Assembly: GCF_013155335.1 (NCBI RefSeq)
Contig: NZ_JABJQZ010000003.1
Location: 1 to 64,000 of the forward strand
Length of the DNA stretch: 64,000 nt
Reading direction: 5' to 3'
Source of the DNA: Nocardioides sp. zg-1230
GTDB lineage: Bacteria; Actinomycetota; Actinomycetes; Propionibacteriales; Nocardioidaceae
The notes under the pieces were generated by a model. That model worked only from the letters and a program-made list of their open reading frames with translations. It had not been told where the DNA came from and ran no database searches. A program made the position numbers and the translations under genes. Positions 7,556 to 19,237 of the stretch are shown piece by piece. Numbering within the stretch: position 1 is the first letter of the stretch; every line of letters begins with the position of its first letter.

Positions 7556-7628
7556 GGGGCTGTGGCGCAGCTGGTAGCGCATCTGCATGGCATGCAGAGG
7601 GTCAGGGGTTCGAGTCCCCTCAGCTCCA
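7556..7628 (+). tRNA. tRNA-Ala (GGC anticodon)
   Basis: A complete 73-base cloverleaf. The acceptor GGGGCTG pairs with CAGCTCC with one G-T; the anticodon arm TCTGC/GCAGA encloses loop ATGGCAT with anticodon GGC; the T arm AGGGG-TTCGAGT-CCCCT is standard; the discriminator is A. The last 42 bases lie in the 43-bp attachment repeat and are now supplied by the integrated element. No CCA follows the discriminator (the DNA reads CAA), while the displaced chromosomal end at attR does encode CCA. Confidence 0.97.
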
Positions 7629-7629
7629 C
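7587..7629 (+). repeat. attL, 43-bp attachment repeat inside tRNA-Ala
   Basis: This 43-bp segment, from the anticodon loop to the tRNA 3' end, recurs perfectly at 19148-19190. Sequences outside the repeat diverge at once on both sides. It is the core site used by a tyrosine integrase that targets the 3' half of tRNA genes. Confidence 0.95.
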
Positions 7630-7635
7630 AAGAAG

Positions 7636-7679
7636 GAATCGGCGGTCTACCTGCAGAAACGCGGGGAGGCCGCCGATTC
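7636..7679 (+). terminator. element-borne terminator for tRNA-Ala
   Basis: GAATCGGCGGTCT (7636-7648) pairs with AGGCCGCCGATTC (7667-7679) over 13 bp with one G-T pair; CTCATTTGG follows in part. It lies seven bases after the tRNA, so the element replaces the chromosomal terminator now stranded at 19197-19226. Confidence 0.6.
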
Positions 7680-8113
7680 TCATTTGGTCGAGATGAGCGG
7701 GAGACCACGGCGCAGACCACGGGTCGGGCTTGGTCGGCCGCTTCACATGCCCGTGACCCGCCCCAACCTCATGTCATGCCGCTGGTGTTGCCGCGAGCCG
7801 ATGTCCGGTGGCGTTGGGGAGCTGCCCGAACGCCCGCGTGTCGGTAGTGGTGGGCACGCCACCCGTCGGCGTTCTGGTGACGGGAGGGGGCCGGAGTCGG
7901 AGTCGGGAGTCGGAGTCGGGAGTCGGGTGCGGGTGATGACGGCGACGAGTCCACGAGAAATCTTCTGAGGGAGTTTCCGCAGGTGGTCGCCGAAGTCGTG
8001 CCCTGATCGCCTCTGCCCCCTCCCGAGGGCGTCTGAACTTCTCGTGCGATCTTCTGCAGCCTGCTCTCACCGGAGGCCCAGAGCGGGTCTCCACGAGAGG
8101 CCAGGAGGCCACC
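7680..8113. other. noncoding left end of the element
   Basis: I find no gene here. The segment holds short direct repeats of GAGTCGG at 7893-7927 and other small repeats, and could include integrase arm-binding sites or the promoter of the gene at 8114. Open frames crossing it are low-quality and overlap the tRNA. Confidence 0.5.
7893..7927 (+). repeat. short tandem repeat, GAGTCGG units
   Basis: Five units of GAGTCGG/GAGTCGGG in tandem with 6-7 base periodicity. There are no spacers of CRISPR type. It may be a recombinase arm or replication site, or simple slippage. Confidence 0.6.
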
Positions 8114-8563
8114 ATGAGCGCCACGACCACCCGCAAGTCCGCGACCCGCAAGCCCGCCGCGAAGGCTGCTCCGAAAGAGCAGAAGCCCGAGCCGGTCGAG
8201 ATCAAGGCGACCGCGAAGAAGGAGTCCGAGCCGCAGCCTGAGCCCAAGACCCTGATCGAAGCGCTCACGACTGGGCAGGCCGCGCTGATCAAGGTCCGCG
8301 CCAACAAGACGACCCGCTCGCTTCCCTACCTCGCCGTGGGGACGGAGGAGCGGAAGCAGGCCGAGGCTGTCGCGAAGATGCGGGAGGGTGGCGCGACCGT
8401 GGACAGCATTGCCGAGTCGTTGAAGGTGTCCACTGCGACCGCCCGACGTTTCCTGACGAACCTCGCCCTCGCCCACGCGGTGGAGGCTGGTGACCACGAC
8501 AAGGCGTGGACTAAGGGCGCCCGCGAGGTCATCGTCCACACCGTGGAGGCGAAGAAGGCGTGA
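8114..8563 (+). CDS. basic-tailed helix-turn-helix protein, unknown
   Basis: A 149-residue protein with an ATG preceded by CCAGGAGGCC. Residues 1-45 are a low-complexity tail rich in Lys, Ala, Thr and Glu, like bacterial histone-like tails. Residues about 90-125 contain a helix-turn-helix (TVDSIAESLKVSTATARRF) followed by a short wing region. A DNA-binding or nucleoid-type role within the element is inferred. It is the first gene from attL and is followed by a hairpin. Confidence 0.7.
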   Translation: MSATTTRKSATRKPAAKAAPKEQKPEPVEIKATAKKESEPQPEPKTLIEALTTGQAALIKVRANKTTRSLPYLAVGTEERKQAEAVAKMREGGATVDSIAESLKVSTATARRFLTNLALAHAVEAGDHDKAWTKGAREVIVHTVEAKKA

Positions 8564-8593
8564 GCCGCCGTCACAACTGAAAGCACGACTCCG

Positions 8594-8624
8594 AGAGGGG
8601 CTGGCCTACGGGCTGGCCTCTCTT
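8594..8624 (+). terminator. possible terminator after the HTH gene
   Basis: GAGAGG (8594-8599) pairs with CCTCTC (8619-8624), followed by TTTG. The loop contains a GGCTGGCC repeat. The stem is short, so support is modest. Confidence 0.4.
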
Positions 8625-8662
8625 TGACGACGTAATTCCCTGCACTCAGGAATGATGGACGG

Positions 8663-9022
8663 ATGACTGATCTCAAGGTGTCGCTAGACGAGGTTGTCCT
8701 CATCACGGCGCGCAACAACAAAGAAATCCGGGTCACGCAGAACATGTACGACGCGCTAGCAAAGTTGCGCCCAGTCCTCGTCGATGCCGCTCGCCGAGGA
8801 ACAACGGTCACGTATAAGGATGCAGCGGTCGCGACCGACAACGCATACCTGCCGCAGGGGCTCGGCCCGGCGCTGGACGTGCTCAGCGAGGACTGCTTCC
8901 GACGCGATGAGCCGTCGCTCGCGTCGCTGGTCGTTCGCAGTGATGTTGGGGAGGTCGGCGACGCGTTCGTCGGAGACGCCGAAGATGAGCGCGAGGCCTG
9001 CTGGCAGCACTGGCAGCGATAG
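8663..9022 (+). CDS. hypothetical protein, small globular domain
   Basis: A 119-residue protein beginning ATGACTGATCTC after GATGGACGG. The central part (VTYKDAA...LPQGLGPALDVLSEDCFRR...LASLVVRSD) resembles an uncharacterised small domain seen near restriction-type or HNH nucleases in actinobacteria, with a Gly-Leu-Gly turn, a conserved Cys and an LVV strand; this is recall of a pattern, not a search. It ends in Trp-rich CWQHWQR. It is not clearly coupled to a neighbour. Confidence 0.6.
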   Translation: MTDLKVSLDEVVLITARNNKEIRVTQNMYDALAKLRPVLVDAARRGTTVTYKDAAVATDNAYLPQGLGPALDVLSEDCFRRDEPSLASLVVRSDVGEVGDAFVGDAEDEREACWQHWQR

Positions 9023-9134
9023 CCGCTGCGCCGACTCTGGCGCGTGAAGAGCGGTGTGTCGGCCCCTCGGGCCACCCGACCCCTGCTCCTCGGTCTAGTG
9101 GCCGAAAGGGGCCGTGTCGGCTGACGTGGCGCAG

Positions 9135-9608
9135 TTAGCCCACCGGCAAGATGCCCAAAACGTCCCAGCGATCCTTCCATTTGGTCAATCGCTTGCTCGT
9201 GATCGCGTGGTGTTGACTGGTGCCACCGCGTGCTCGCTGACCGCCGTGGCGAGCGAGATAGGCCGCGTGGTGCTCGTGAATGTCGTTCTCCACCCACCAA
9301 GCGGGCGCGATGTAGAAGTCGGGATGCTCCGGACCGAGGTCGACGAAGATCCAGAACTTCTCTTCTGTCGGGTCCTCTTGCCGGGGATGCGCGTCGCGCG
9401 CCACGTTGGCGTGCCAACTGCCCGCCGTCTTGGTCTTTACCTGAATCGCGATCTTGCGGAGATGCTCCGCATCGCTGGCGAGCAGGTCGATCCCTTTCAT
9501 GTTGCCGCTGAAGGTGACGGCATAGCCGCCGCGCCGGTGAATCTCTGCCGCGACGAAGTGTTCGCCTGCCGGACCGACCTGACCCGTGTGGAGCTTCATG
9601 CTTGGCAT
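9135..9608 (-). CDS. probable PD-(D/E)XK nuclease-like protein
   Basis: A 157-residue protein with a plausible nuclease core: GEHFVAAEIHRRG (Glu 16 or 22), GIDLLA (Asp 41), then IQVKTK with Gln 56 and Lys 58 as a Q-x-K version of the (D/E)-x-K motif. A Trp-rich segment (KFWIFVDL, PAWWVENDI) follows. This order matches DUF4365-type and Mrr/Holliday-resolvase-like proteins that are often found in defence or mobile-element cargo. It lies 30 bases behind a small HTH gene on the same strand, probably one transcript. Activity is inferred; the E/D-x-K substitution deserves testing. Confidence 0.6.
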   Translation of the reverse strand: MPSMKLHTGQVGPAGEHFVAAEIHRRGGYAVTFSGNMKGIDLLASDAEHLRKIAIQVKTKTAGSWHANVARDAHPRQEDPTEEKFWIFVDLGPEHPDFYIAPAWWVENDIHEHHAAYLARHGGQRARGGTSQHHAITSKRLTKWKDRWDVLGILPVG

Positions 9609-9638
9609 TGAACACGAGGCTCGGGGCCTTGGGTCAGG

Positions 9639-9833
9639 TCACCCGGCCAGCGGGTGCGGGTGGGCCCGATAGAAGTCGCGGAGCGACTTGATGGTGATGC
9701 AGCCGCGCTCGTCGGTCGCGAGCTTGCCGTCCGCGATCTGGCTGCGGACGAAGTCGGGCGAGCGTTCCCACTCGCGGGCGAGCTGTCCGATGGTCAGGCC
9801 GTCTCGGTAGGCGGCGGTCGGTGCCTTGGGCAT
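9639..9833 (-). CDS. small helix-turn-helix (excisionase/MerR-like) protein
   Basis: A 64-residue protein; I chose the internal ATG at 9833 because GAAGGAGACC sits seven bases before it. The fold is a single HTH_17-like domain: TIGQLAREWERSPDFVRSQI, then a short wing GKLATDERGCITIKS, then a final helix DFYRAHPH. Such proteins act as excisionases or local regulators. It is upstream of the probable nuclease in the same direction and divergent from the membrane protein at 9902. Confidence 0.65.
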   Translation of the reverse strand: MPKAPTAAYRDGLTIGQLAREWERSPDFVRSQIADGKLATDERGCITIKSLRDFYRAHPHPLAG

Positions 9834-9901
9834 GGCGGTCTCCTTCGTTGGTCCTGCGGACCAGTACACAGATGATTGGCGCGGTTCTGGGCTCACGAAC
9901 G

Positions 9902-10651
9902 ATGTCGGAGCTGGCAACTACCTTGCTCCTCATGGATGTGACGAAGTGGGGCGCAGCAGAGTGGGCTGCATTCGGCGCGGTCGGAGCGGTCGTTGTCTAC
10001 ATTGTTCTCGGGGTGATCGCGCTCCGGCAGTTGGGCGAATCTCGTCGGCTCCGAGAGTTGGAGCACCGGCCCTACGTGCTAGTGGATTGGTACTTCAAGG
10101 GCTTCTTCGTTGCGCTGGAGGTCCGCAACATTGGTCGGACCCCGGCTCGTGACGTTCGGGTGACCTTTGACAAGCCCCTGCAAGCCACCGTCAAAGCGCG
10201 CGTGCCGGACTTCAGCATCTTCGAATCTCCGATTCCCCTGATGGCTCCTGGCCGAGTCATCAGGCTCCCTATGGGCACAGGGCCAGAGTTCTTCAAGGAC
10301 GGCGCTGACGTCCCGCTCTCATATTCGGCTCACGTCAAGTACACCGACATGACCGGGAAGCAGGAGTACGACGACCCGCCGTTGCTCCTTGACCTTGAGC
10401 CCTACAAGCACACGACTGCACCAAGGGACAACGCTGCCGAACTAGTGGATGCCGTCCGCAACGTGCGGGACACGCTCAACAAGTGGAACTCGCACAACGG
10501 CCTGAAGGTCGTCTCGACGGACCGGCTGAGGTATGACCGCCGTGAGGAGCGGTGGGATCACTTCTACGAGGCCCGACGGATGATCCGCGAGGGTGGCGTC
10601 AAGCGACTCTGGCAGTTCGAGACAGAGCGGTTGAAGCGGCGCTTTGGCTAG
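9902..10651 (+). CDS. membrane-anchored protein of unknown function
   Basis: A 249-residue protein with one N-terminal membrane helix (about residues 20-42) and a soluble remainder. The first soluble part has an immunoglobulin/CARDB-like look (ALEVRNIGRTPARDVRVTFD, then a run of beta strands); the C-terminal 70 residues are charged and helical. The start is uncertain: ATG at 9902 or ATG at 9932 (MDVTKWGAAEW) both lack a strong ribosome site. The divergent HTH-nuclease pair next door makes a small module possible. No known function is recognised. Confidence 0.6.
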   Translation: MSELATTLLLMDVTKWGAAEWAAFGAVGAVVVYIVLGVIALRQLGESRRLRELEHRPYVLVDWYFKGFFVALEVRNIGRTPARDVRVTFDKPLQATVKARVPDFSIFESPIPLMAPGRVIRLPMGTGPEFFKDGADVPLSYSAHVKYTDMTGKQEYDDPPLLLDLEPYKHTTAPRDNAAELVDAVRNVRDTLNKWNSHNGLKVVSTDRLRYDRREERWDHFYEARRMIREGGVKRLWQFETERLKRRFG

Positions 10652-10688
10652 CCGCCGTGGTCGCAGCCGTGGTCGACGCTGGGTCCGT

Positions 10689-10707
10689 CACGCTCGGGTC
10701 GAGCGTG
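10689..10707 (+). terminator. weak hairpin after the membrane protein
   Basis: CACGCTC-GGGTC-GAGCGTG, a 7-bp perfect stem in the 98-base gap between two same-strand genes. It lacks a T run. Confidence 0.3.
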
Positions 10708-10749
10708 GCGACCCTCGGCTGGCGTAGGCGATGTGCCTAGAATCCGCGG

Positions 10750-11220
10750 ATGGCTTTGAACTTCGGTGGGCAGCGAATTCGGATTACTGGCGTCGGTCCG
10801 TGGTCGATCCAGTGGGAATATCTGCCCACGAATCGCGAGATCGTTCGTCGGGTGCTAGCCGACATAGAGATCCGTGAGGTGTTCTACGGAGCGGTGGCGC
10901 AGGAAGACCCGGAGTTCTGTCGCGTCTCGATGATGGAAGTGCGCGACATCATGACTGGAGAGTTGGCACGTGTAGAGCAGGGTGATGCCCTCGATTACGA
11001 CCTGCGCATCATTCGAAACGCCGCCAAGGAGTTCAACACCGAGGCGGGCGGGAGTGCTCGGAACTTTCTCCGTGATCCAGAGCTCTTTGCACGGGCGCTC
11101 GACACCATGCGCAACGCGGTCGCACCACCGATCCGCCGTATGGCCGTTGCGTACAACGTGTTGATTGATCACCGCCTCGACGCCGGACTACCTCCCAGCG
11201 TTTACAAGGTCGTCCCCTGA
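10750..11220 (+). CDS. hypothetical protein
   Basis: A 156-residue, mostly helical, charged soluble protein starting at ATG after GAATCCGCGG. I recognise no domain. The central helix region (NREIVRRVLADIEIREVFYGAV, split by acidic turns) and the C-terminal PPIRRMAVAYNVLIDHRLDAG helix give no catalytic signature. Its 3' end overlaps the integrase gene tail-to-tail by 19 bases, so transcripts converge here. It is cargo of unknown role. Confidence 0.6.
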   Translation: MALNFGGQRIRITGVGPWSIQWEYLPTNREIVRRVLADIEIREVFYGAVAQEDPEFCRVSMMEVRDIMTGELARVEQGDALDYDLRIIRNAAKEFNTEAGGSARNFLRDPELFARALDTMRNAVAPPIRRMAVAYNVLIDHRLDAGLPPSVYKVVP

Positions 11221-12494
11221 GGCCGTCCATTGTCCGGTAGGGGCGCGATGCTGACCACGTCGTCTCTACCCCCGCCGTAAAGCCGCTCAACGATTGCGTC
11301 CATGCTCGGGTCGTCCTGATAGACCTTCGTGTAGACGTCCATCGTGGTCTTGATCGACGTGTGGCCCATCCAGTCCTTCAAGACGTGGGGAGGGACGCCC
11401 TCTTGGGCTCGCAGGCTCGCGAAGGAGTGCCGGAGGTCATACACACGAGGCGCGTTCTCGTCGGTGAAGCCAGCGGCCTTGACTGCCCGCTTCCACTGCC
11501 TGCGGGCGAACATCTTGTAGACGAAGAACTCGCCCTGATCCGCGAACACGAAGTCGTCAGCGCCAAGCCGGCGATCCTCGACGTAGGACCAGAACTCAGT
11601 CATGACTGCCTTAGGCACCGGCACGACCCGACCCTTGGACTTGACCGTCTTCGTTCGCCCCACGCTGAGCACGCCGTTGAGGTCCTGGATGGTGTCCTCG
11701 ACCTGCACGCGGCACCGCAACTGGTCGACGTTGCGGACTCGGAGACCCGCCAGTTCGCCCGGTCGAAAGCCCGTCCAGAACGCCAGTAGCGCGAAGAGCC
11801 GGTAGCGACCCTCCGGCAGGTGGCCGATGATCGCCTCGGCTTGGTGCCTCGTCAGCGGGCGAGCTTCGAAGTCCTTCCCACTGATCTTGCGTAGCCGCTT
11901 CTGGAAGTGCTCCGTCGGAGCCTCGTTGATGTACCGCTCCTCCACTGCGTAGGCGAATACTGACCGCGCGACGCTGAAGATCTTGTGCTCAGTCTCCTGG
12001 CTCAATCCGTTGGGCTTGCCCTTCGCGAGCACCTTGCCCGTGGGGGAGAGGCGGGCGGGGCGAGGCTTGCGGATGTTCTCGATCAGCCGGCGAACGTCCT
12101 CGCGGCTGATGTCGGAGATGGCGACGTTGTCCCATTGGCTGAGGTGGCGACTCAGAAGGTGGCGATAGCCCGAGACGGTCCGCGGTCGGAGAGTTTCGCC
12201 GAACGCGTCGAGCCACTCGTTGCTCACCGTCGCCCACGTGACCGCGCCTCGATCCGGACTGATGTAGGTCCGATTGCTGATCGCCTGCGCCGTGCTGATC
12301 TGGAATGCCTTCGCTTCCTTCAAGGTGCGGAAGGTCCTACCTCGGACCATCGCCTCGCCGTTGCTGGAGATGGTGTTCGGATCGCGGTATCGCACTTCAT
12401 ATCCGCGCAGCGTGAACGGGTCGTCCTTCCTGTGCCGGTAGCGGATGCCCTTCTCTCCCGGGACTGGGCCGACGTACTGCTTCTTAGGTGCCAT
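11202..12494 (-). CDS. int: tyrosine-type site-specific integrase
   Basis: A 430-residue tyrosine recombinase. An N-terminal arm-binding AP2-like part is followed by a core-binding SAM-like domain (about residues 85-160) and the catalytic domain. Catalytic residues: Arg 244 (GFRPGEL), Arg 355 in YDLRHSF (the usual first His of the H-x-x-R box is Tyr 352, common in actinobacterial integrases), His 378 (GHTS) and Tyr 388 (VYTKV). The ATG has AGGAG seven bases before it. It should catalyse integration into the 3' end of tRNA-Ala. It lies near the centre of the element rather than beside an att site, which is unusual. Confidence 0.95.
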   Translation of the reverse strand: MAPKKQYVGPVPGEKGIRYRHRKDDPFTLRGYEVRYRDPNTISSNGEAMVRGRTFRTLKEAKAFQISTAQAISNRTYISPDRGAVTWATVSNEWLDAFGETLRPRTVSGYRHLLSRHLSQWDNVAISDISREDVRRLIENIRKPRPARLSPTGKVLAKGKPNGLSQETEHKIFSVARSVFAYAVEERYINEAPTEHFQKRLRKISGKDFEARPLTRHQAEAIIGHLPEGRYRLFALLAFWTGFRPGELAGLRVRNVDQLRCRVQVEDTIQDLNGVLSVGRTKTVKSKGRVVPVPKAVMTEFWSYVEDRRLGADDFVFADQGEFFVYKMFARRQWKRAVKAAGFTDENAPRVYDLRHSFASLRAQEGVPPHVLKDWMGHTSIKTTMDVYTKVYQDDPSMDAIVERLYGGGRDDVVSIAPLPDNGRPQGTTL

Positions 12495-12515
12495 GTGAAT
12501 CTCCTATCGGTGAAT

Positions 12516-12625
12516 GACCCTCTGCTGTCGAGGGCCGACAAGGCGTACAGAACGAAGGGCAGGGATCGAAAGGACCTCTGCTGCTCCATCTCCGTGTGGA
12601 GTGAGGGGAGGGCGACCCTCTGCTG
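12516..12625. repeat. three direct repeats GACC(C)TCTGCTG before int
   Basis: Copies at 12516-12527, 12573-12583 (one C fewer) and 12614-12625 in the 270-base gap between the divergent int and lipoprotein genes. They could be regulator or recombinase binding sites. No other gene is visible in the gap. Confidence 0.5.
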
Positions 12626-12764
12626 CGCTGGCAGAACCGCACTCGTCGTCTGACCAGCGGAGTCCGCGCTTCAGCGCGTCAGGAGACCAACGAGGAGACC
12701 ACGGGAGCAGTCGGGAAGCGGCGTTCGCCAGCGGGAGGCCGAGGTATCGGCAAAGATCGTTGTC

Positions 12765-13631
12765 ATGCGTTCCTTGACTGCGACGGTGCTGGTTGTCTGT
12801 CTGTCTGCCCTATCGGCATGCGGTGGCGAGGGGGACTCAAAGGAGGCGAATGCAGACACAAGCGCCACCACTACCCCGTCTGCCGAGCCCTCCGACACCG
12901 AGACGACGGAGCCAGCCCCGCCACCTCCGGACAAGGACGGTGACGGCGTGCCAGACGATCAGGACGTCTACCCGAACAACCCGCTGGCCGACGTTCCGGA
13001 GTCGATCGAGGTTGTCTGCGACGTCAAGGGCGGCAGGACTCGGTTTCTCATCGACCGGGTCAAGCCGAACTGGAAGGAAGTTTGGAACACGCCTCTACCG
13101 CAGAAGCGGGGAGCGTTCGGGCCGACGGTGTACTGCGAGTCGTACGGAGGTCGCCTGGAGCCCGTGTCTGGAATCGAGCAGGCGCTCAACGACGCCGACA
13201 AGAAGCCAGACAAGTACACACTCCGAATTCCGTACGAGCAGTGTGTGGAGCACGGCACCAACTGGACGATGAACGAGTGGCCCGTGGGAGATGGACAGGT
13301 CAAGGAAGCGCAGCAAGCCCTTTTGCTCTGCCCCAACCATCCCGATGCTGCCGCGATCAGGTCACGTATCGCTGACGTCGGTGTTCTACAGACGGCGATC
13401 AAGGAAGGCCGCGCCTTCGGCGACGGCAATTATCGCGTCGGAACGGGTGTCCAGCCCGGAACATACTTCACCGAGAACGTCGAGAATTGCTATTGGGAGC
13501 GTCTTGACTCCGCAGGCAACATCATCGACAACAACTTCATCTCCAGCGGCCTTCGGGTAGAGGCCACCATCTCGGCGTCGGACTTCTCGTTCCATGCCGA
13601 GGGCTGTGGGATGTGGCGGCAGGTCGCATAG
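12765..13631 (+). CDS. secreted lipoprotein with Ca-binding repeat
   Basis: A 288-residue protein with a lipoprotein signal: hydrophobic residues 5-17 and lipobox LSAC with Cys 19. A Thr/Ser/Pro/Glu-rich linker follows, then a thrombospondin type-3-like calcium motif DKDGDGVPDDQD (about residues 56-67). The C-terminal 70 residues match a domain common on actinobacterial secreted proteins: VGTGVQPGTYFTEN, then CYWERL, then a final CGMW. It should sit on the outer face of the membrane. It is divergent from int. Lipoproteins in temperate elements can block superinfection, but that role is only a suggestion here. Confidence 0.75.
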   Translation: MRSLTATVLVVCLSALSACGGEGDSKEANADTSATTTPSAEPSDTETTEPAPPPPDKDGDGVPDDQDVYPNNPLADVPESIEVVCDVKGGRTRFLIDRVKPNWKEVWNTPLPQKRGAFGPTVYCESYGGRLEPVSGIEQALNDADKKPDKYTLRIPYEQCVEHGTNWTMNEWPVGDGQVKEAQQALLLCPNHPDAAAIRSRIADVGVLQTAIKEGRAFGDGNYRVGTGVQPGTYFTENVENCYWERLDSAGNIIDNNFISSGLRVEATISASDFSFHAEGCGMWRQVA

Positions 13632-13733
13632 CGACAGCCGATCTGCGGGGTGAGCGAATGCGGGTCGGCCTCGGTGCCCACATCGGGGCTGGTCCCACGT
13701 TCTAAGGCCGAATGCGCCGATGCTCGTCGGTGA

Positions 13734-14207
13734 CTAGCGCAGCCGTGGGCCGGGTAGCGGGTGCGGTGGCCGGTCGTGGAGCAGGGAAGGCAGCCGCTCG
13801 ACGTTGGATGGCGGAATAGCGCGGGTCTCCTCAACAATCTCGGCGTCCACGATGTCGTCACCGACGTCGACCAGGATTCCGTCGAGGGCCTCCTGCCACG
13901 GCTCGATCATGACCTTGACCTCGTTGCGGTTCTCATAGGTCAGCAGGAACTCAGCGACCTTGCGGCGCTCGGAGAACGGGATGCGCTTGTCGCCCATCGC
14001 CTTGACGAGCATCGATGCCGCGTCGTCCTGTGCCATGAGGATGCGCTCTTGAGCCTTGCGCCTGACCTGAGGTGCTGCTCCGCCGTGCTTGTTGCACACG
14101 ACGCTGCCCTTCATCGCCCACTTGGCACACTGCTCGCCCCAGCGGTTCGTCGCCTTACATCGGACCTTCTGCGGATACGCCCCGCCACGTCGTCTCGGCT
14201 TGCTCAT
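13734..14207 (-). CDS. phage-like Cys/His-motif protein
   Basis: A 157-residue protein whose N-terminus has C17-x9-C27-x10-C38-x2-H41 followed by GGAAPQVRRKAQ, a pattern common in actinophages and prophages near packaging genes, probably a small zinc site. A helical middle (residues 50-95) and an acidic, Pro-rich C-terminus follow. No DNA-packaging activity can be shown from sequence. The start overlaps the stop of the winged-helix gene by four bases (ATGA), so the two are coupled. It is the best pointer to a phage or satellite origin. Confidence 0.65.
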   Translation of the reverse strand: MSKPRRRGGAYPQKVRCKATNRWGEQCAKWAMKGSVVCNKHGGAAPQVRRKAQERILMAQDDAASMLVKAMGDKRIPFSERRKVAEFLLTYENRNEVKVMIEPWQEALDGILVDVGDDIVDAEIVEETRAIPPSNVERLPSLLHDRPPHPLPGPRLR

Positions 14208-14494
14208 AGGTTCCTCTCTTCATGGGTTGAGTCGAGGCCGATCACCTCGATGCGAAGTCCTGGTCTGCCGTACCTTCCGACGTTCGCCGGCGCGAGTGAG
14301 ACGAGCCCTTCGGCCTCAAGCTCGTGCAGCGCGTCTCGTAGTGCTTGCCGTGGGGAGGAGGAGAGTCGACTGATGACGCGACCCTTACCGCAGAGCCCCT
14401 TGCTCAGATCGCTGAACAGGAGCGTCGGCCGCCCGTCTGATTCGAACCAGCCCCAGACGAGGTCTCGGATCGACGCGTGCCTACTGGTGGTCAT
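14204..14494 (-). CDS. winged-helix-like protein
   Basis: A 96-residue protein. The order helix, helix (SSSPRQALRDALHELEAEG) and beta wing (LVSLAPANVGRYGRPGLRIEVI) fits a winged-helix DNA-binding fold as in GntR/MarR-like or replication-accessory domains. It is in the same direction as the rep genes upstream, separated by the GGAGGGAA repeat region. The exact role, regulator or replication accessory, is unknown. Confidence 0.6.
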   Translation of the reverse strand: MTTSRHASIRDLVWGWFESDGRPTLLFSDLSKGLCGKGRVISRLSSSPRQALRDALHELEAEGLVSLAPANVGRYGRPGLRIEVIGLDSTHEERNL

Positions 14495-14565
14495 GACTAC
14501 TGACTCCTGCGGTCGAGGGAAGTAAGAAGCCGATATGTGGCTGTGCGCTGGGAGGTAGCCCCTTG

Positions 14566-14651
14566 TTCCCTCCCCCTAAGGGGCGGAGGGGAGGGAATCA
14601 AGGGCTTCCCTCCAGCAGCCACGGAGGGGAAGGGAGGGAAGGCGGAGGGAA
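14566..14651. repeat. GGAGGGAA repeat cluster beside the rep gene (possible origin)
   Basis: Five copies of an 8-mer GGAGGGAA in 86 bases: 14590-14597, 14633-14640 and 14644-14651 direct; 14566-14573 and 14606-14613 inverted. The outer pair at 14566-14575 and 14588-14597 forms a 10-bp perfect stem. The cluster directly follows the RepA-like gene, so an iteron-type origin or autoregulatory site is plausible. Purine strand bias is strong. Confidence 0.5.
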
Positions 14652-14663
14652 GGCGGGAAGGCG

Positions 14664-15767
14664 TCACGACTCCTCCTTCGGAGCGTGCTCTTTGAGCCAC
14701 TGCCTCGTGGAAGGACCGATCTTCTTTCGAACGATGAGCCCCTCGGATTCCAAGCTCGACAGCGCTCCGCTGAGTCCGCCCTTCTTCGTGACGTTGAGTC
14801 GCTTCTCCAGATCGCCGACGATCGCGCCCTTGCCTTCGACCGTTGCTAGGGCGTTGAGAATCTCGGGCTTCCACTTGTCGATCCCGTTGGTTCGGCGGTT
14901 GCCGTCAGCCCCCGTGAGTCGACGCGTGCTGCGGTCGTACTCCAGCTTGAACTCGGGCACGTAGCCGGAGCCCGTGCGGCCTTCCATGTAGAGGAAGCGA
15001 TCCTGATGTTCGTCCTTGGCAAGGATCATGCGATTGTCGGCCCAGTCATCGAGGGCTGTTGCGCCACGCGACCTCTCCTCACCGAAGCCCTGCTCGCTTC
15101 GCCCGGTGTGTACGTAGAGAAACAAGTCCTTGACTCCTGACTCCTCCTTGATCACGTCGAGCACGTCGGTGAAGGCGTTCACGTCGTCGTTGCTGTTCTC
15201 GCTACCGAAGCCCTTGAACGCTCGACGGTGCGGGTCGAGATGAAGGACCTCAACGTCCATCTCCGAGCACCACTTGATGAGCTCTTCTTGATTGCGCGTG
15301 CCGACGAGGCTGAACGGCACTCCGCGCAGGTTCAGCAGCGCGATGCGCTTGCGCTTCCGGATGCCTTGATCCTCTAGCCAGTCGAGCATGTCCGAGTCGG
15401 TCAGCTCGTAGTTGAGCAACCCGATCCGGCCGCTGGGTTTGATCACCGAGTAGCGACCGAGGAAGTCGTCCCCGTCCGCGAGGCTGCGGAGCATGTTTCC
15501 GCCGAGGGTGGTCTTTCCCGTCTTGAAACGAGCCGTGATCGTGGTGCTGTGGCCCACTTCGTGGAAGCCCTCGATGCGATGGGGCGTCTCGTCTGGTCGC
15601 GGGCGGGCAAGCGCCTCAGCCAACGTCAGCCTCGGAAGCACGATCTGGCGCTTCTCGGCTTCCTCTTCAGCCAGGATGCGCGCCGCTTCCTGCCTCACGC
15701 GAAGTCGACCCAGCTCCTTGCTGAGGAGCGTCGCGTGGGCGCTCTGAGAGTTGCCCTTATTGCTCAC
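14664..15767 (-). CDS. RepA-like AAA ATPase / replicative helicase
   Basis: A 367-residue protein with a RecA-type ATPase core: Walker A ARFKTGKTT (residues 79-87), Walker B-like VLHLDP (Asp 178), and a sensor-like YVHTG segment with GATALDDWAD further on, the order seen in RepA/AAA_25 helicases of plasmids and phages. The C-terminal 75 residues look like a winged helix (ILNALATVEGKGAIVGDLEKRL). It probably unwinds or loads at an element origin. It overlaps the DUF3854 gene by four bases, matching primase-helicase pairs. Replication by the element is inferred. Confidence 0.8.
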   Translation of the reverse strand: MSNKGNSQSAHATLLSKELGRLRVRQEAARILAEEEAEKRQIVLPRLTLAEALARPRPDETPHRIEGFHEVGHSTTITARFKTGKTTLGGNMLRSLADGDDFLGRYSVIKPSGRIGLLNYELTDSDMLDWLEDQGIRKRKRIALLNLRGVPFSLVGTRNQEELIKWCSEMDVEVLHLDPHRRAFKGFGSENSNDDVNAFTDVLDVIKEESGVKDLFLYVHTGRSEQGFGEERSRGATALDDWADNRMILAKDEHQDRFLYMEGRTGSGYVPEFKLEYDRSTRRLTGADGNRRTNGIDKWKPEILNALATVEGKGAIVGDLEKRLNVTKKGGLSGALSSLESEGLIVRKKIGPSTRQWLKEHAPKEES

Positions 15768-16549
15768 GACGCGACCTGTCCCGAGCCCGCTTCTCCCTGC
15801 GGCCCCCTCCTGTGCGACGGCCTCACCAGAGCCCGTAGATCGCCGACGGTGTGCCCAGCAACGAAGTAGTCATCTAGCCCCGTCTTGGCCCCGTTCTGTC
15901 CGGCAGGCAGGTCGGCCCAGAACACCCGGGCACCCAAGCGCAGCAAGAAGCCGGTGAGGCGTTGCCGAGCTTCCTGCACCTTCTGGTTAGTGACCTGATC
16001 GCTGTCGAACACGATGGTGAACGCGCGCTCCGTAGGGAAGTGACCCCACTCGTCGCACGGCACCGAGTACGAGTACGGACGGCCGCTCTCGCTACGCGGC
16101 CGATACACGAAGTTGTCCACGCCCGAGAGTCCGAGACAGACGAGCCCGCGAGACGTCGCAGCGTCAGCCTTCTTGTGGCCCTCGGTGATTAGCACTCCAA
16201 CGCCCGGGTCTTTAAGCCGCTCAAGCATCGACGGGTGGACGTCGATGTAGTTCCGGGCCCGTCTCGGAGCGAGGTACTTCAACTGGCGCTGCGACTCCGG
16301 ATCAACGATTGGCACGTCGGGCCGGTAGATCGCGGGTGACGGAGTCAGGGAGGGGGCAGGAGTCGGGGGATGCAGAGGGATCAGTAGACCCCTCTCGCTG
16401 CCTCGCCAGTGAACGCGAGGGCGGAACCCGTACTCGCGAAGTTCCTCCGGGTCGCGGATCGTGCGATAGCCCCGCTGCTTCACTACCTCGGGTGATATCC
16501 CGCTCTCGTCAACCAGCATTCGATAATGCCGTCGGGCGAGCTTCTTCAC
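15764..16549 (-). CDS. DUF3854 / TOPRIM-like primase-associated protein
   Basis: A protein of 261 residues from the GTG at 16549, which has AAAGGA six bases before it. An upstream TTG at 16630 in the same frame would add 27 residues but lacks a ribosome site. The DUF3854 core is visible: LKYLAPRRAR, then VLITEGHKKADA (TOPRIM-like Glu), and TIVFDSD (Asp pair), as in primase-like domains of mobile elements. A Pro-rich linker precedes it. The stop overlaps the RepA-like start, so both proteins probably act together in initiating element replication. Confidence 0.75.
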   Translation of the reverse strand: MKKLARRHYRMLVDESGISPEVVKQRGYRTIRDPEELREYGFRPRVHWRGSERGLLIPLHPPTPAPSLTPSPAIYRPDVPIVDPESQRQLKYLAPRRARNYIDVHPSMLERLKDPGVGVLITEGHKKADAATSRGLVCLGLSGVDNFVYRPRSESGRPYSYSVPCDEWGHFPTERAFTIVFDSDQVTNQKVQEARQRLTGFLLRLGARVFWADLPAGQNGAKTGLDDYFVAGHTVGDLRALVRPSHRRGPQGEAGSGQVAS

Positions 16550-16843
16550 GTCGATTCCTTTCGCGTTATTGCCGCTAATCACGTCGGCTGGCACCAGCCT
16601 ACGGAATGTGAGCCCCTTATCCGGGCTCAAAATTCATTGCCCTGCTCCAACCAATTTCAGGCGAGAGGTTTTCTCGCTGACAGACCGTGGAACAATGGGC
16701 CGTGGCGCTTCTTCCTTTCACGCCTGCGGCCTAATCAACCGCGAACTTCCGGCCTCACCGTTCTGACCCGTCCGGTGGGGCCGGATCTTCTTTATGCTGA
16801 GGGCGTCCCCTGAATGCGCGGCTGAGCCGCACCCCTGATAGGA
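16550..16843. other. intergenic region before the rep operon
   Basis: No gene is seen. The stretch is less GC-rich around 16600-16700 and should contain the promoter of the DUF3854-RepA operon on the minus strand. I cannot define a -35/-10 pair with confidence. Confidence 0.45.
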
Positions 16844-16890
16844 CCGAGCGGGCGGGGCTGGCGCGTTACGAAAACACCCCACCCGCTCGG
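16844..16890 (-). terminator. terminator between the RHH operon and the rep operon
   Basis: CCGAGCGGG-C-GGGG (16844-16857) pairs with CCCC-A-CCCGCTCGG (16877-16890), 13 pairs with one mismatch and a 19-base loop. It lies four bases after the stop of the gene at 16895. Confidence 0.6.
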
Positions 16891-16894
16891 AGAC

Positions 16895-17245
16895 TCAGGC
16901 CGCGGAGCGGCGGAAGGGTCGCGGCTCGATGGTGAGGCCGCTGCGGGGGTCGTTGAGCGCGTCGAGGATCAGCGCTCGGAGGGCGAGTCGGTCGACCATC
17001 CGGCCTCGTGCTCGCAGGTGCTGGCGAGTCCGACCGCTCAGCAGATGGACGGGCATCAGGTATCCGCGACCCGAGCGAAGCCCTTGCTCTTCCTCCCACG
17101 CGGTGTAGACCTCGTGCAGCAGGCGGACCGACTTCCGTGGCTTGACCCCGGTCGGTCGGACACCGTGACTGTCCTGGATGTGGTTCAGGTCGTCCCACGT
17201 GAGTGGGGGCTCTTGGGCGTTACGCTGGCTAGGCACGCTAACCAC
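16895..17245 (-). CDS. hypothetical basic protein
   Basis: A 116-residue, Arg-rich protein with no recognised domain. It has a helix-rich middle (SVRLLHEVYTAWEEEQGL) and two short basic helices (RARGRMVDRLALRALILDAL). It is the last gene before a strong hairpin in the minus-strand cluster that begins with the RHH gene at 18254. A nucleic-acid role is possible from charge only. Confidence 0.55.
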   Translation of the reverse strand: MVSVPSQRNAQEPPLTWDDLNHIQDSHGVRPTGVKPRKSVRLLHEVYTAWEEEQGLRSGRGYLMPVHLLSGRTRQHLRARGRMVDRLALRALILDALNDPRSGLTIEPRPFRRSAA

Positions 17246-17359
17246 ACACCTTCCCGTGTGTTTGATGGTGCCCCGCGAGATTCGTTGGCGCGTCCTCGCG
17301 GGGTCACCGGGTTCAGTTCGGATGAGTGGCGCTCCGCCTAGCCCCGGAGCGTCCGGATG

Positions 17360-17839
17360 TCACATGAGGGCCGCCGCACCTCGCTTCCGCTGGTCCTCGG
17401 CGAGGTCAACGGCGAGGCTCGGCCTGCGGTCGTTGAGCGTGGGGAAGCGGGAGTAGAACTCCGTCAGGTAACCGACCGGGTCCTCGTCCATCGCCTGTCG
17501 CTTGGCCTCGACGGACTGGAGAGACTCGAGCACCTTCTCCAAGGTGATGCGCTCGTTGATCAGCCGCTTCTGGAGCTTCGCCAAGTCCTTCCACGGCACC
17601 TCGTTGCGCTCGGCCTGTTTGCGGACAGCGACCAGTCGTTCCTGTAGGCCGTCAAGGCGAGCAAGGACGTCCTTGGCCTTCTGCTGGTCGCGTGCTCGGC
17701 TGTCGCGAATCTCGCTCCGAACCCGCTGCTCGTCTGCCGCCCGAGCCCTCGCCTCCCACGTTGCGATGAAGTTGTTGTCAGCGATGCTGAGGCCGGGCAC
17801 GTTCCTCATCTGGAACGCCTGTTGTGCGTAGTAGTCCAT
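17360..17839 (-). CDS. coiled-coil protein, unknown
   Basis: A 159-residue protein dominated by a long charged helix (about residues 25-125) with heptad-like spacing of Leu and Ala, broken by VPWKDLAKLQ. The end (GYLTEFYSRFPTLNDRRPSLAVDLAEDQ) is a shorter, separate segment. No catalytic motif is seen. It follows the 55-residue protein with a three-base gap, so translation is likely coupled. A structural or partner-binding role is possible. Confidence 0.6.
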   Translation of the reverse strand: MDYYAQQAFQMRNVPGLSIADNNFIATWEARARAADEQRVRSEIRDSRARDQQKAKDVLARLDGLQERLVAVRKQAERNEVPWKDLAKLQKRLINERITLEKVLESLQSVEAKRQAMDEDPVGYLTEFYSRFPTLNDRRPSLAVDLAEDQRKRGAAALM

Positions 17840-17842
17840 CGG

Positions 17843-18010
17843 TCAGCCCCTCAGGTGTGGCGGGAGCGACTGGTTGCCAGCCCGCTCCTCTGCGTAGATG
17901 TCCTCAAGTTCCTTGGTGCGTCGACGCTGAGCGAGTACCGCGTCCTCGGCCTTGAGCTGGTAGTCATACGTCCGGTCGAGCTCTTCGCGGATCTGTTCGA
18001 GTTCACGCAT
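17843..18010 (-). CDS. 55-residue charged helical protein
   Basis: The start ATG at 18010 overlaps the end of the RHH gene by eight bases, and the next gene follows after three bases. The protein is one long charged helix (MRELEQIREELDRTYDYQ...) ending in a Pro-rich tail. The tight packing between two same-strand genes supports it as real. Function is unknown. Confidence 0.55.
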   Translation of the reverse strand: MRELEQIREELDRTYDYQLKAEDAVLAQRRRTKELEDIYAEERAGNQSLPPHLRG

Positions 18011-18254
18011 CGGGGACCCCTTCCATCGCTTCGTGAATGACCTCCTGGGCGCGGGCGACCGCCGTAGCGTCGTCCGCCCCCCGAGCGCCGATGGTGGACT
18101 TCGCCTCCGCGACAAGAGCTGCATCGAGCAGCGCCCGCAAGTAGTCGCTCGAAGTGATCCCGTGCATGGCCGCAACTTCGTTCAGATAGTCGCGTTGCTT
18201 GATCGACACCCGAAATGTCAGATTGATCGGAAAGTCGCTGTGACTCTTTGGCAT
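18003..18254 (-). CDS. ribbon-helix-helix type DNA-binding protein
   Basis: An 83-residue protein starting at the second ATG (18254), ten bases after AGGAGG; the first ATG at 18263 is too close to that site. The N-terminal strand LTFRVSIKQRDYLNEVAAMHGITSSDYLRALL fits the RHH/CopG pattern, with a strand and two helices. Such small proteins regulate plasmid or phage operons. It is first in a four-gene minus-strand cluster and has the best promoter of the element just upstream. Confidence 0.7.
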   Translation of the reverse strand: MPKSHSDFPINLTFRVSIKQRDYLNEVAAMHGITSSDYLRALLDAALVAEAKSTIGARGADDATAVARAQEVIHEAMEGVPDA

Positions 18255-18347
18255 ATCTCGCATTCCTCCTTTGCCTAGTGCCTTGCGGCTTGCTGGTTAC
18301 CGCATGGCATAAACCTAGGGAATACGGGCATCCATTTGGGGCTCGGA

Positions 18348-18376
18348 AATAAATTGCTTCATATGGCCGAGGTCAA
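18348..18376 (-). promoter_or_regulatory. candidate promoter of the RHH operon
   Basis: On the minus strand TTGACC (18376-18371) and TTTATT (18353-18348) are spaced by exactly 17 bases, in the most AT-rich stretch of the element and about 95 bases before the RHH start. Confidence 0.55.
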
Positions 18377-18458
18377 TGTTTAGTTGTCAAGAAGCAGCGC
18401 ATCTGAGGGTGCTCGGAACCCCGTCTGCATCGTGGGGAGACGAGGAACCGGGCAGCCC

Positions 18459-18674
18459 TCAGGCGTCGCCGCCTTGGGCGAGGTAGGCCTCGACGCTCTC
18501 GGGCAGGACGAGGCGACGAGCGCCGACCTTGACGGACTGCACCTTCCCGTCGCGCACAATCCGCCACGCCGTCTTCGAACTGACGTGCAGCAGCTCGGCC
18601 AGCGACAGCGGGTGGTCGCCGTCCTTCGGTGTCGTCCTTGCGTCGACGCGAATGAGCGGTTTGGTCAGATCCAT
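18459..18674 (-). CDS. xis: excisionase-family HTH protein
   Basis: A 71-residue protein from the ATG at 18674, which follows GAGAGGAAG by four bases. It is a typical MerR/HTH_17 excisionase: HPLSLAELLHVSSKTAWRIVRDG, then the wing VQSVKVGARRLVLPESVEAYL. It is the likely directionality factor for the integrase and lies nearest attR. A nested hairpin in its upstream leader suggests transcriptional attenuation. Confidence 0.75.
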   Translation of the reverse strand: MDLTKPLIRVDARTTPKDGDHPLSLAELLHVSSKTAWRIVRDGKVQSVKVGARRLVLPESVEAYLAQGGDA

Positions 18675-18710
18675 GGGGCTTCCTCTCGGAAGGCTCGCGC
18701 CAGAAAGCAA

Positions 18711-18747
18711 GACGCCGGACACGAGCCGGTTGGCTCTGCCCGGCGTC
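18711..18747 (-). promoter_or_regulatory. nested hairpin in the xis leader (attenuator-like)
   Basis: GACGCCGG (18711-18718) pairs with CCGGCGTC (18740-18747); inside it GAGCC (18723-18727) pairs with GGCTC (18732-18736). On the minus strand the stem is followed by TTGCTTTC, so it could terminate transcription entering xis. Confidence 0.5.
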
Positions 18748-19147
18748 CGTTCTGGAGAACTCAGGACCCACACAGTCGAACAGTCACAAGGGTTCCGACT
18801 GACCTATCGCCCGTGTCGCTCCGGACTTGATCAACCAGCGCCGCACTACCTCCCAGTTATCTTCCTCGGACGTGCGACCGACCGACTGGGATACGCCGTT
18901 CTGTTCTGACAGCAGGCCGACATCGAGGCAGGCTCCGACCCGCGCGCCAAGGCTTCCGAGGCCTCCGGATCGCAGTTGGAAGCAATCTGTCCGACGCTGA
19001 CCCCGGTTGACCCAACTCGACCACTTCTAGACCACGGGCCACCCCTCGTCGGCGCTCGTCTGCCGTGGTCTGCGGCTCACCTCGGACTCAGCGTTCCGAG
19101 CGTGGAATCGGCCCTGACCTGCACGAACACCAAGCGGCTCTGTCGCA
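18748..19147. other. noncoding right end of the element
   Basis: About 400 bases with no supportable gene. It would be expected to hold the xis promoter and integrase/excisionase arm sites next to attR, but I could not identify them. Confidence 0.5.
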
Positions 19148-19190
19148 ATGGCATGCAGAGGGTCAGGGGTTCGAGTCCCCTCAGCTCCAC
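19148..19190 (+). repeat. attR, displaced tRNA-Ala 3' end
   Basis: A perfect 43-bp copy of the attL core. It is the original chromosomal end of the tRNA-Ala gene and is followed by CA, so that the full CCA end was encoded. It has no 5' half and is not a functional tRNA. Confidence 0.95.
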
Positions 19191-19196
19191 CAACAC

Positions 19197-19226
19197 AGAA
19201 GGCCCGCGGACACCCGCGGGCCTTCT
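19197..19226 (+). terminator. original tRNA-Ala terminator, now stranded
   Basis: AGAAGGCCCGCGG-ACAC-CCGCGGGCCTTCT, a perfect 13-bp stem and four-base loop, six bases after attR. It would have ended the tRNA transcript before the element inserted. Confidence 0.8.
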
Positions 19227-19237
19227 GGCATTTCGGT

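What the first reader, a model, noticed from the sequence alone, without database searches (positions are those of the whole stretch)
7587..19190. An 11.6-kb integrated element with clean 43-bp att repeats in tRNA-Ala
The perfect 43-bp duplication, the integrase, two Xis-like proteins, and the change in base use all mark one foreign element. Its gene set does not match a standard prophage or ICE.
Basis: partly seen in the sequence, partly recalled or inferred. Interest (0 to 1): 0.72.

Follow-up and report, generated by a model that had tools for sequence, protein, structure and literature searches.

The report
Probable phage-satellite island in tRNA-Ala
This is an 11.6-kb stretch of foreign DNA inserted into a tRNA gene of a GC-rich bacterium, probably an actinobacterium; its genes suggest that it copies itself and then borrows a phage's shell to spread, but this has not been tested in the laboratory.

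Summary
A perfect 43-bp repeat (7587-7629, 19148-19190) flanks 11.5 kb of 63.6% GC DNA in a 72.6% GC window. The left copy is the 3' end of tRNA-Ala(GGC). Same-genus relatives have the tRNA without the element and with the native terminator right behind it; in the window that terminator lies beyond attR.
The element carries a tyrosine integrase, Xis-like genes, a two-gene replication module (DUF3854 protein, AAA ATPase) and cargo. No capsid, portal, TerL, tail, relaxase or FtsK gene was recognised.
The key gene is 13734-14207, an HGG-motif protein. In viral loci with its motif, TerL was detected in 35 of 80; it lies downstream on the same strand in all 35 and within 600 bp in 26, against 31 of 340 control genes. 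The family profile's two best PDB hits are small terminases.
A same-genus sibling (L222) keeps the core at another tRNA-Ala, with replicase and cargo exchanged and the integrase only 22% identical. Best reading: a PICI-like phage satellite that redirects a helper's packaging with its own TerS. Induction, packaging and helper are untested.

The parts
7556..7629 (+). tRNA-Ala(GGC), the integration target; its 3' 43 bp are attL
   Evidence: ARAGORN; Rfam tRNA 65.2 bits
7587..7629 (+). attL core, 43 bp
7635..7680 (+). Terminator-like hairpin carried by the element directly behind the tRNA; would stand in for the displaced native terminator
   Evidence: -35.1 kcal/mol, z -5.8; a similar sequence and hairpin in sibling L222
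8114..8563 (+). HTH protein, 149 aa, part of the conserved core
   Evidence: weak HTH matches; 70% identical in sibling L222
9135..9608 (-). Mrr-like nuclease candidate, 157 aa; cargo
   Evidence: Mrr_cat E 0.0022, below cut-off; no match in sibling L222
9639..9833 (-). second small HTH/Xis-like protein
   Evidence: weak HTH_58, below cut-off; 44% identical in L222
9902..10651 (+). probable membrane protein (by eye: hydrophobic N-terminal stretch); cargo
   Evidence: matches phrog_9607 and phrog_11802, unknown function; no match in L222
10750..11220 (+). DUF6650-like protein; cargo
   Evidence: PF20355 E 8e-4, below cut-off; no match in L222
11202..12494 (-). tyrosine integrase, 430 aa
   Evidence: PF00589 8.5e-21; phrog_1 8e-63
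12765..13631 (+). secreted lipoprotein with Rv1352/Rv1906c domain; cargo
   Evidence: NF053833 1.1e-15, above cut-off; no match in L222
13734..14207 (-). HGG-motif protein, 157 aa: candidate small terminase (TerS)
   Evidence: position relative to TerL in viral loci; A3 profile vs solved small terminases; phrog_3678 1.1e-8
14204..14494 (-). winged-HTH-like protein just upstream of the TerS candidate
   Evidence: weak GntR, below cut-off; 37% identical and same place in L222
14496..14663 (.). purine-rich repeats with a 29-nt inverted repeat between the ATPase and the wHTH gene: possible origin or pac site, a guess
   Evidence: fold z -1.4, not significant
14664..15767 (-). AAA_25 replicative ATPase, 367 aa
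   Evidence: PF13481 4.8e-16; phage DnaB-like/primase-helicase relatives
15764..16630 (-). DUF3854 protein, probable primase/replication partner of the ATPase
   Evidence: PF12965 5.5e-16; relatives include plasmid replication and phage primase proteins
16895..17245 (-). conserved core protein, 116 aa, unknown
   Evidence: 63% identical in L222
17360..17839 (-). conserved core protein, 159 aa, unknown
   Evidence: 65% identical in L222; found in 2 of 209 genus genomes, own included
17843..18010 (-). conserved core protein, 55 aa
   Evidence: 78% identical in L222
18003..18263 (-). NikA-like, probably ribbon-helix-helix DNA-binding protein, 86 aa
   Evidence: PF21983 3.2e-4, below cut-off; 71% identical in L222
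18459..18671 (-). HTH_17 Xis/AlpA-like protein at the head of the left-reading gene block
   Evidence: PF12728 8.6e-8, above cut-off; TIGR01764 1.7e-5, below cut-off
19148..19190 (+). attR core, 43 bp
19196..19228 (+). native tRNA-Ala terminator-like hairpin, displaced by the insertion
   Evidence: -31.9 kcal/mol, z -8.2; a like sequence sits right behind the tRNA in relatives, closest in L034

Best explanation
The element is a PICI-like phage satellite. Shown: it inserted by site-specific recombination into the 3' end of tRNA-Ala, keeps the tRNA sequence whole and carries a hairpin of its own where the terminator was. Inferred: when a helper phage infects, the Xis-like protein and integrase cut it out. 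The DUF3854 protein and AAA ATPase replicate the circle. The HGG protein acts as a small terminase that marks element DNA for the helper's large terminase, so that the element travels in helper particles. The lipoprotein, membrane protein and nuclease are exchangeable cargo, perhaps against other phages. It makes no particle of its own.
For: Integration. Integrase and replication genes. No capsid, portal, TerL, tail or lysis gene recognised among the 17 ORFs scanned. HGG protein as TerS: TerL detected in 35 of 80 motif-matched viral loci, same strand and downstream in 35 of 35, within 600 bp in 26, against 31 of 340 other genes in the same loci; in named phages Mae-JY09 and D_HF5_3 it is the gene directly before TerL; the A3 profile's two best of 177,635 PDB sequences are small terminases (E 0.0015, 0.0046). 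Same kind elsewhere: ATPase-HGG-Int in this order on one strand in L076, L078, L234 and L245 as in the window; L222 keeps 9 of the 16 element proteins compared, the integrase at only 22% identity. An att-bounded 10.0-kb element with a related ATPase (L080) has TerL, portal, major capsid and head-connector genes and no tail gene among those scanned, the cf-PICI plan.
Against: The window's HGG protein alone has no meaningful PDB hit, Foldseek finds no significant PDB match, and the model is poor from about residue 91 on. HGG genes are not next to TerL in the stretches viewed of phages Kozie, Megan, Mimi, TripleJ and Montesquieu, nor in the 8 same-genus loci with TerL or portal, where TerL or portal lies some 2.5-6.5 kb downstream; HGG may have other roles. 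No TerL was detected in 45 of 80 viral loci, and some of the 35 are near-duplicates. One of the 11 same-genus HGG-Int loci without TerL (L244) has a tape-measure gene, and related ATPases also occur in probable whole prophages (L084). No clear helper prophage in the host by two TerL families: phrog_9 none, phrog_2 two weak hits. No Stl-type repressor was identified. Excision, packaging and transfer were not observed.
Confidence: 0.64

Rival explanations
1. An integrative mobilizable element or stripped-down actinomycete integrative element (AICE-like): it excises and replicates with its own module, but moves by conjugation with the relaxase or FtsK-type pump of another element.
For: Integrase plus Xis plus an own replication module is also the AICE plan (recalled). 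The protein 18003-18263 resembles the mobilization protein NikA (3.2e-4, below cut-off). Sibling L222 has a Prim-Pol replicase, a type known from AICEs (recalled).
Against: No relaxase and no FtsK/TraB match among the 17 scanned ORFs. The HGG protein and its TerL linkage are not explained. Related ATPases sit with packaging or capsid genes in L077, L079, L080, L084 and L089.
Confidence: 0.2
2. A prophage remnant that has lost its late genes.
For: Integrase, replication genes and a TerS-like gene are all phage-type; the size is below that of a usual tailed phage.
Against: The core ORFs are open and the att sites perfect. Much of the same reduced gene set is kept as a unit in L222 in another species and another tRNA gene. 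No fragments of structural genes recognised among the ORFs scanned.
Confidence: 0.1
3. The HGG protein is not a terminase but a small zinc-binding DNA protein of another kind; the element is then a satellite that relies on a cos-like site or on general transduction, or one of the other rivals (these odds overlap with those).
For: HGG genes away from TerL in several phages; the motif resembles NCBI's HGGxSTG domain (NF041373, below cut-off).
Against: 26 of 35 directly before TerL against 31 of 340; small-terminase matches of the helical part.
Confidence: 0.25

Closest known systems
TerS-carrying PICIs (SaPI type)
   Same: Integrase, own replication module, small terminase candidate, no recognised capsid/tail/lysis genes, cargo, near the usual size (criteria in PMC6092414, passages read)
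   Different: Probably actinobacterial; replication by DUF3854 protein plus separate AAA ATPase; TerS candidate with an HGG zinc-knuckle-like motif; no Stl repressor recognised; induction and packaging untested
Candidate PICIs of Mycobacterium (PMC10654092) and predicted Actinomycetota PICIs (mentioned in PMC10690885)
   Same: Islands of actinobacteria; in the Mycobacterium ones tyrosine integrases at tRNA genes and some DNA helicases
   Different: The Mycobacterium ones were defined by a major capsid gene (passages read); none is recognised in the window element
Capsid-forming PICIs
   Same: Related AAA ATPase in an att-bounded 10-kb element with TerL, portal and capsid (L080)
   Different: Window element lacks recognisable capsid and TerL genes
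Rhodococcus qingshengii pDJL3 (NZ_CP025962, 15.9 kb circular)
   Same: AAA ATPase (31% over 84% of the query) and integrase
   Different: Carries its own terminase and tape-measure genes; no HGG hit

Membership tests
PICI (criteria in PMC6092414) | Integrase | tested here: met
   PF00589 8.5e-21
PICI (criteria in PMC6092414) | Replication module | tested here: met
   AAA_25 4.8e-16 and DUF3854 5.5e-16
PICI (criteria in PMC6092414) | Master transcriptional regulator (Stl or AlpA type) | tested here: inconclusive
   HTH_17 protein 18459-18671 and other small DNA-binding candidates; which one is the switch is unknown
PICI (criteria in PMC6092414) | No phage structural or lysis genes | tested here: met
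   none recognised in Pfam and PHROGs scans of 17 ORFs; several ORFs have no match at all
PICI (criteria in PMC6092414) | Size typically 12-15 kb | tested here: inconclusive
   11.56 kb from att to att, just below
PICI (criteria in PMC6092414) | att site never used by prophages | not tested
   The 8 relatives examined lack this element at the site; no survey of prophages at this tRNA
PICI (criteria in PMC6092414) | Small terminase or helper cos/pac site (in some PICIs) | tested here: inconclusive
   HGG protein is a candidate TerS; no biochemical proof
PICI (criteria in PMC6092414) | Induction and packaging by a helper phage | not testable with these tools
   needs a culture
Capsid-forming PICI | Own capsid, portal and large terminase | tested here: not met
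   none recognised
ICE / AICE | Relaxase or FtsK/TraB-type transfer gene | tested here: not met
   none recognised
Prophage | Structural, packaging-motor and lysis genes | tested here: not met
   none recognised

The most novel reading that the evidence does not exclude
The element belongs to an undescribed lineage of actinobacterial TerS-only satellites. A fixed core (NikA-like, 55-aa, 159-aa and 116-aa proteins, wHTH, HGG protein) is combined freely with different integrases, replicases and cargo. Its HGG protein is a small-terminase family so far filed as unknown function. Related replication ATPases serve both these TerS-only satellites and capsid-forming ones, so the replication unit is the backbone on which two packaging strategies are swapped.
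Probability: 0.45. Interest if true: 0.66.

Novelty: new variant of a known kind. Interest (0 to 1): 0.52.

Why it matters
In the passages read, the Mycobacterium candidates were found by their capsid genes (PMC10654092) and the Streptomyces satellites carry capsid genes (PMC10690885); other predicted Actinomycetota PICIs come from a survey that I could not read. A TerS-only class would be missed by capsid-based searches. If the HGG protein is a small terminase, then a protein whose PHROGs family is listed as unknown (phrog_3678) gains a function and such islands can be searched for by one motif: in this genus 30 of 209 genomes carry an HGG match, own included, and 11 of the 30 neighbourhoods that I examined have it near a tyrosine integrase without TerL or portal.

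Tried and rejected
Closest viral relatives by back-translated peptides of the ATPase, the DUF3854 protein, the HGG protein and the 159-aa core protein: no confirmed relative in viral contigs. One scan of genome contigs with the DUF3854 protein gave one locus, a Rubrobacteraceae MAG contig. The 159-aa core protein has no match in plasmids. The ATPase and the DUF3854 protein have no PDB match by phmmer. Defence-system models, 10 of the element's proteins scanned: only weak HTH matches to CRISPR regulators (CARF3/CasR) on 8114-8563; not taken as a defence gene. Iteron-like origin: only a purine-rich repeat tract at 14496-14663, whose fold is not clearly better than shuffles; left as a guess. Promoter and terminator scans gave no more than shuffles. 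A replacement hairpin inside attL as a general trait of such islands: present in the window, L222 and L080, absent in L078, L082 and L092, so not general. Foldseek on the HGG model gave no significant PDB match; the viral library gave two matches at E <= 0.001, a WRC protein and an unnamed Megan protein. Mutual exclusion of HGG and TerL among the 18 ATPase neighbourhoods (HGG in 7, TerL in 5, both in 0) is suggestive but too small a sample to lean on; a 6e-5 TerL fragment in L092 and the weak TerL-like hit in L093 were not counted. In one search a 6e-5 TerL fragment in L233 was likewise not counted. A paper search on tRNA terminators of integrative elements gave two papers, not opened. Neither the phylum nor the genus was named by any search; 'actinobacterium' is inferred from the high GC and from the named relatives of its genes, and my guess from recall for the genus is Nocardioides.
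Full report
Observation. The perfect 43-bp repeat is at the stated coordinates and is the only direct repeat of at least 30 bp in the window. The left copy is the 3' end of tRNA-Ala(GGC), 7556-7629. The 11,518 bp between the copies have 63.65% GC, the rest of the window 72.6%; 3-kb stretches inside and outside do not overlap in GC.

Insertion is shown by relatives. From the relatives found I fetched 8 same-genus genomes with the left flank. The element has no blastn match in any of them, and in all 8 the left-flank and right-flank matches share 43 bp at the end of the tRNA. In L039 and L044 the right flank continues in one unbroken alignment; in L036, L037 and L045 its main part follows about 50 bp on; in L034, L035 and L038 about 2.5, 1.7 and 1.1 kb of other DNA lie between. 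The exact 43 bp were found in 6 of the 8 (not in L037 and L045), each time directly followed by a hairpin-like sequence, as read by eye. In the window this hairpin lies beyond attR (19196-19228, z -8.2), and the element carries a hairpin of its own behind the tRNA (7635-7680, z -5.8). The integrase has no relative at E <= 1e-40 in the other 214 of 215 genus genomes searched.

Gene set. Pfam and PHROGs scans of 17 ORFs, NCBIfam and PADLOC scans of 10 each: tyrosine integrase; HTH_17 Xis/AlpA-like protein; a protein with a sub-threshold NikA match; DUF3854 protein and AAA_25 ATPase in overlapping genes; wHTH-like protein; HGG protein; lipoprotein with an Rv1352/Rv1906c domain; probable membrane protein; DUF6650-like protein; Mrr-like nuclease candidate (sub-threshold). 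No capsid, portal, TerL, tail, lysis, relaxase or FtsK match. PADLOC gave only weak HTH matches to CRISPR regulators, on 8114-8563.

Replication module. DUF3854 relatives include plasmid replication proteins and phage primases; in a sample of the class 7 of 394 genomes, own included, have one. The ATPase has relatives at E <= 1e-15 in 15 of 391 genomes of the order and 4 of 396 of the phylum sample, own included in both. Its best relatives in named phages are annotated as DnaB-like helicases; in plasmids the one hit is Rhodococcus pDJL3, a 15.9-kb circle with integrase, terminase and tape measure.

Neighbourhoods of the ATPase relatives. All 18 non-own matches of these two searches were fetched and scanned for marker proteins. 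HGG proteins occur in 7 of 18 (L076, L078, L081, L082, L088, L090, L093), TerL in 5 of 18 (L077, L079, L080, L084, L089), both in none; a short 6e-5 TerL match in L092 and a weak TerL-like hit in L093 are not counted. Of 11 loci tested for repeats of a tRNA end, five show one of 21-48 bp that brackets the ATPase and integrase: L078 12.2 kb, L080 10.0 kb, L081 11.9 kb, L082 6.6 kb, L092 6.4 kb. L080 has integrase, ATPase, TerL, portal, major capsid, scaffold and head-connector matches and no tail gene among those scanned, the layout of a capsid-forming PICI. L084 also has a tape-measure gene and may be a whole prophage, so the ATPase is not confined to satellites.

The HGG protein. Named phages: it is the gene before TerL in Microcystis phage Mae-JY09 (E 1e-6) and in oral phage D_HF5_3 (E 7e-5); in Neferthena and Chepli gene 1 stands before TerL but the window protein matches it only weakly (E 3 and 0.3); Neferthena gene 1 matches phrog_3678 at 9e-59, which the window protein matches at 1.1e-8 over the motif part. 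In the stretches viewed of Kozie, Megan, Mimi, TripleJ and Montesquieu it is not adjacent to TerL. To avoid picking cases I scanned viral contigs for the motif: 92 stretches reported, 80 loci held, each with an HGG ORF. TerL was detected by iterated phmmer in 35 of 80; in all 35 it lies downstream on the same strand, in 26 within 600 bp and in 9 within 3 kb. Three pairs of loci look like near-duplicates by equal gap and TerL length (L101/L165, L105/L118, L123/L154); counting each pair once leaves 24 of 32. Control: 31 of 340 other called genes in those loci have TerL downstream within 600 bp. A profile of 35 family members (A3) has as its two best PDB matches small terminase subunits 6w7t (E 0.0015) and 7joq (E 0.0046), aligned over the helical part behind the motif; the next best, a copper regulator, has E 0.3. 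The window protein alone has no such match, and the AlphaFold model (mean pLDDT 73.8) gives no significant PDB fold match.

Same genus. A3 matches 30 of 209 genomes, own included, in 33 places. I fetched 30 neighbourhoods that hold 31 of these; the other two are the window and L093. Of the 30, 11 have a tyrosine integrase and no TerL or portal (one of them, L244, has a tape-measure gene; one, L233, a short 6e-5 TerL match not counted), 8 have TerL or portal (downstream on the HGG strand in 8 of 8, some 2.5-6.5 kb away), 8 only serine recombinases, 3 none. The order ATPase-HGG-integrase on one strand is shared by the window, L076, L078, L234 and L245.

The sibling. L222, in another species of the genus, sits in another tRNA-Ala with a 47-bp repeat, 13.3 kb apart. 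It keeps the NikA-like (71%), 55-aa (78%), 159-aa (65%) and 116-aa (63%) proteins, wHTH (37%), HGG (38%), second Xis-like (44%) and the HTH protein 8114-8563 (70%) in the same order, plus a distant integrase (22%): 9 of the 16 proteins compared. Its first gene is also an HTH_17 protein. The DUF3854/AAA pair is replaced by one 670-aa Prim-Pol protein with a sub-threshold AAA_25 match, and the cargo differs. Its att arm and inner hairpin resemble the window's. The 159-aa protein occurs at E <= 1e-8 in 2 of 209 genus genomes, these two. This argues for a maintained, modular element and against a decaying prophage.

Mechanism. Shown: site-specific insertion, open core genes, a recurring architecture. 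Inferred: phage-triggered excision, self-replication, TerS-directed packaging by a helper's TerL. Helper: none evident in the host genome by two TerL families, so it may be an incoming phage.

Known work. PICI criteria are from PMC6092414 (passages read). Actinobacterial candidates are reported in PMC10654092 (passages and abstract) and PMC10690885 (passages); PMC10023795 (passages) suggests that small actinobacterial elements may be satellites. Searches for satellites or PICIs with actinobacteria, Nocardioides, DUF3854 or an HGG terminase gave no listing whose title or abstract start describes a TerS-only actinobacterial satellite or names the HGG protein a terminase; I did not open most of the listed papers. 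The large survey by de Sousa and colleagues (PMC10085698) is not held and may contain such elements.

Noticed in passing
L003, own genome C1:973906-974278: A tRNA-Ala-like gene is followed by three head-to-tail units of about 98 bp, each a broken tRNA-Ala copy with an intact-looking 3' half.
   Followed up: partly
L029 and L030, own genome C4:154272-157793 and C8:157916-161437: 3,522 bp with a 471-aa integrase frame are 100% identical in two contigs, in opposite orientation: a duplicated element or assembly redundancy.
   Followed up: partly
L080, 3311-13301: A 10.0-kb att-bounded element in tRNA-Val with integrase, ATPase, TerL, portal, major capsid and connectors, no tail gene among those scanned: a capsid-forming PICI layout in the same order.
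   Followed up: yes
L248, 3540-15151: An 11.56-kb island in tRNA-Leu (49-bp repeat) with HGG protein, integrase and a cargo pair of GmrSD-like nuclease and EcoRI-type methylase.
   Followed up: partly
L093, 4575-19501: Same-genus locus at tRNA-Leu with integrase, ATPase and HGG protein plus a tape-measure and a weak TerL-like gene: perhaps a satellite or prophage of mixed type.
   Followed up: partly
window 14496-14663: Purine-rich GGGAAGG repeats and a 29-nt inverted repeat between the replication ATPase and the wHTH gene.
   Followed up: partly
own genome C3:65846-66304 and C1:1128270-1128653: Weak matches to a large-terminase family (E 2.4e-4 and 6.2e-4), probably other ATPases.
   Followed up: no
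window 7630-7635: Insertion changes the bases after the tRNA's discriminator: a CCA end is encoded at attR and in some relatives (L034, L038, L044) but not at attL; other relatives (L035, L036, L039) do not encode it either.
   Followed up: no
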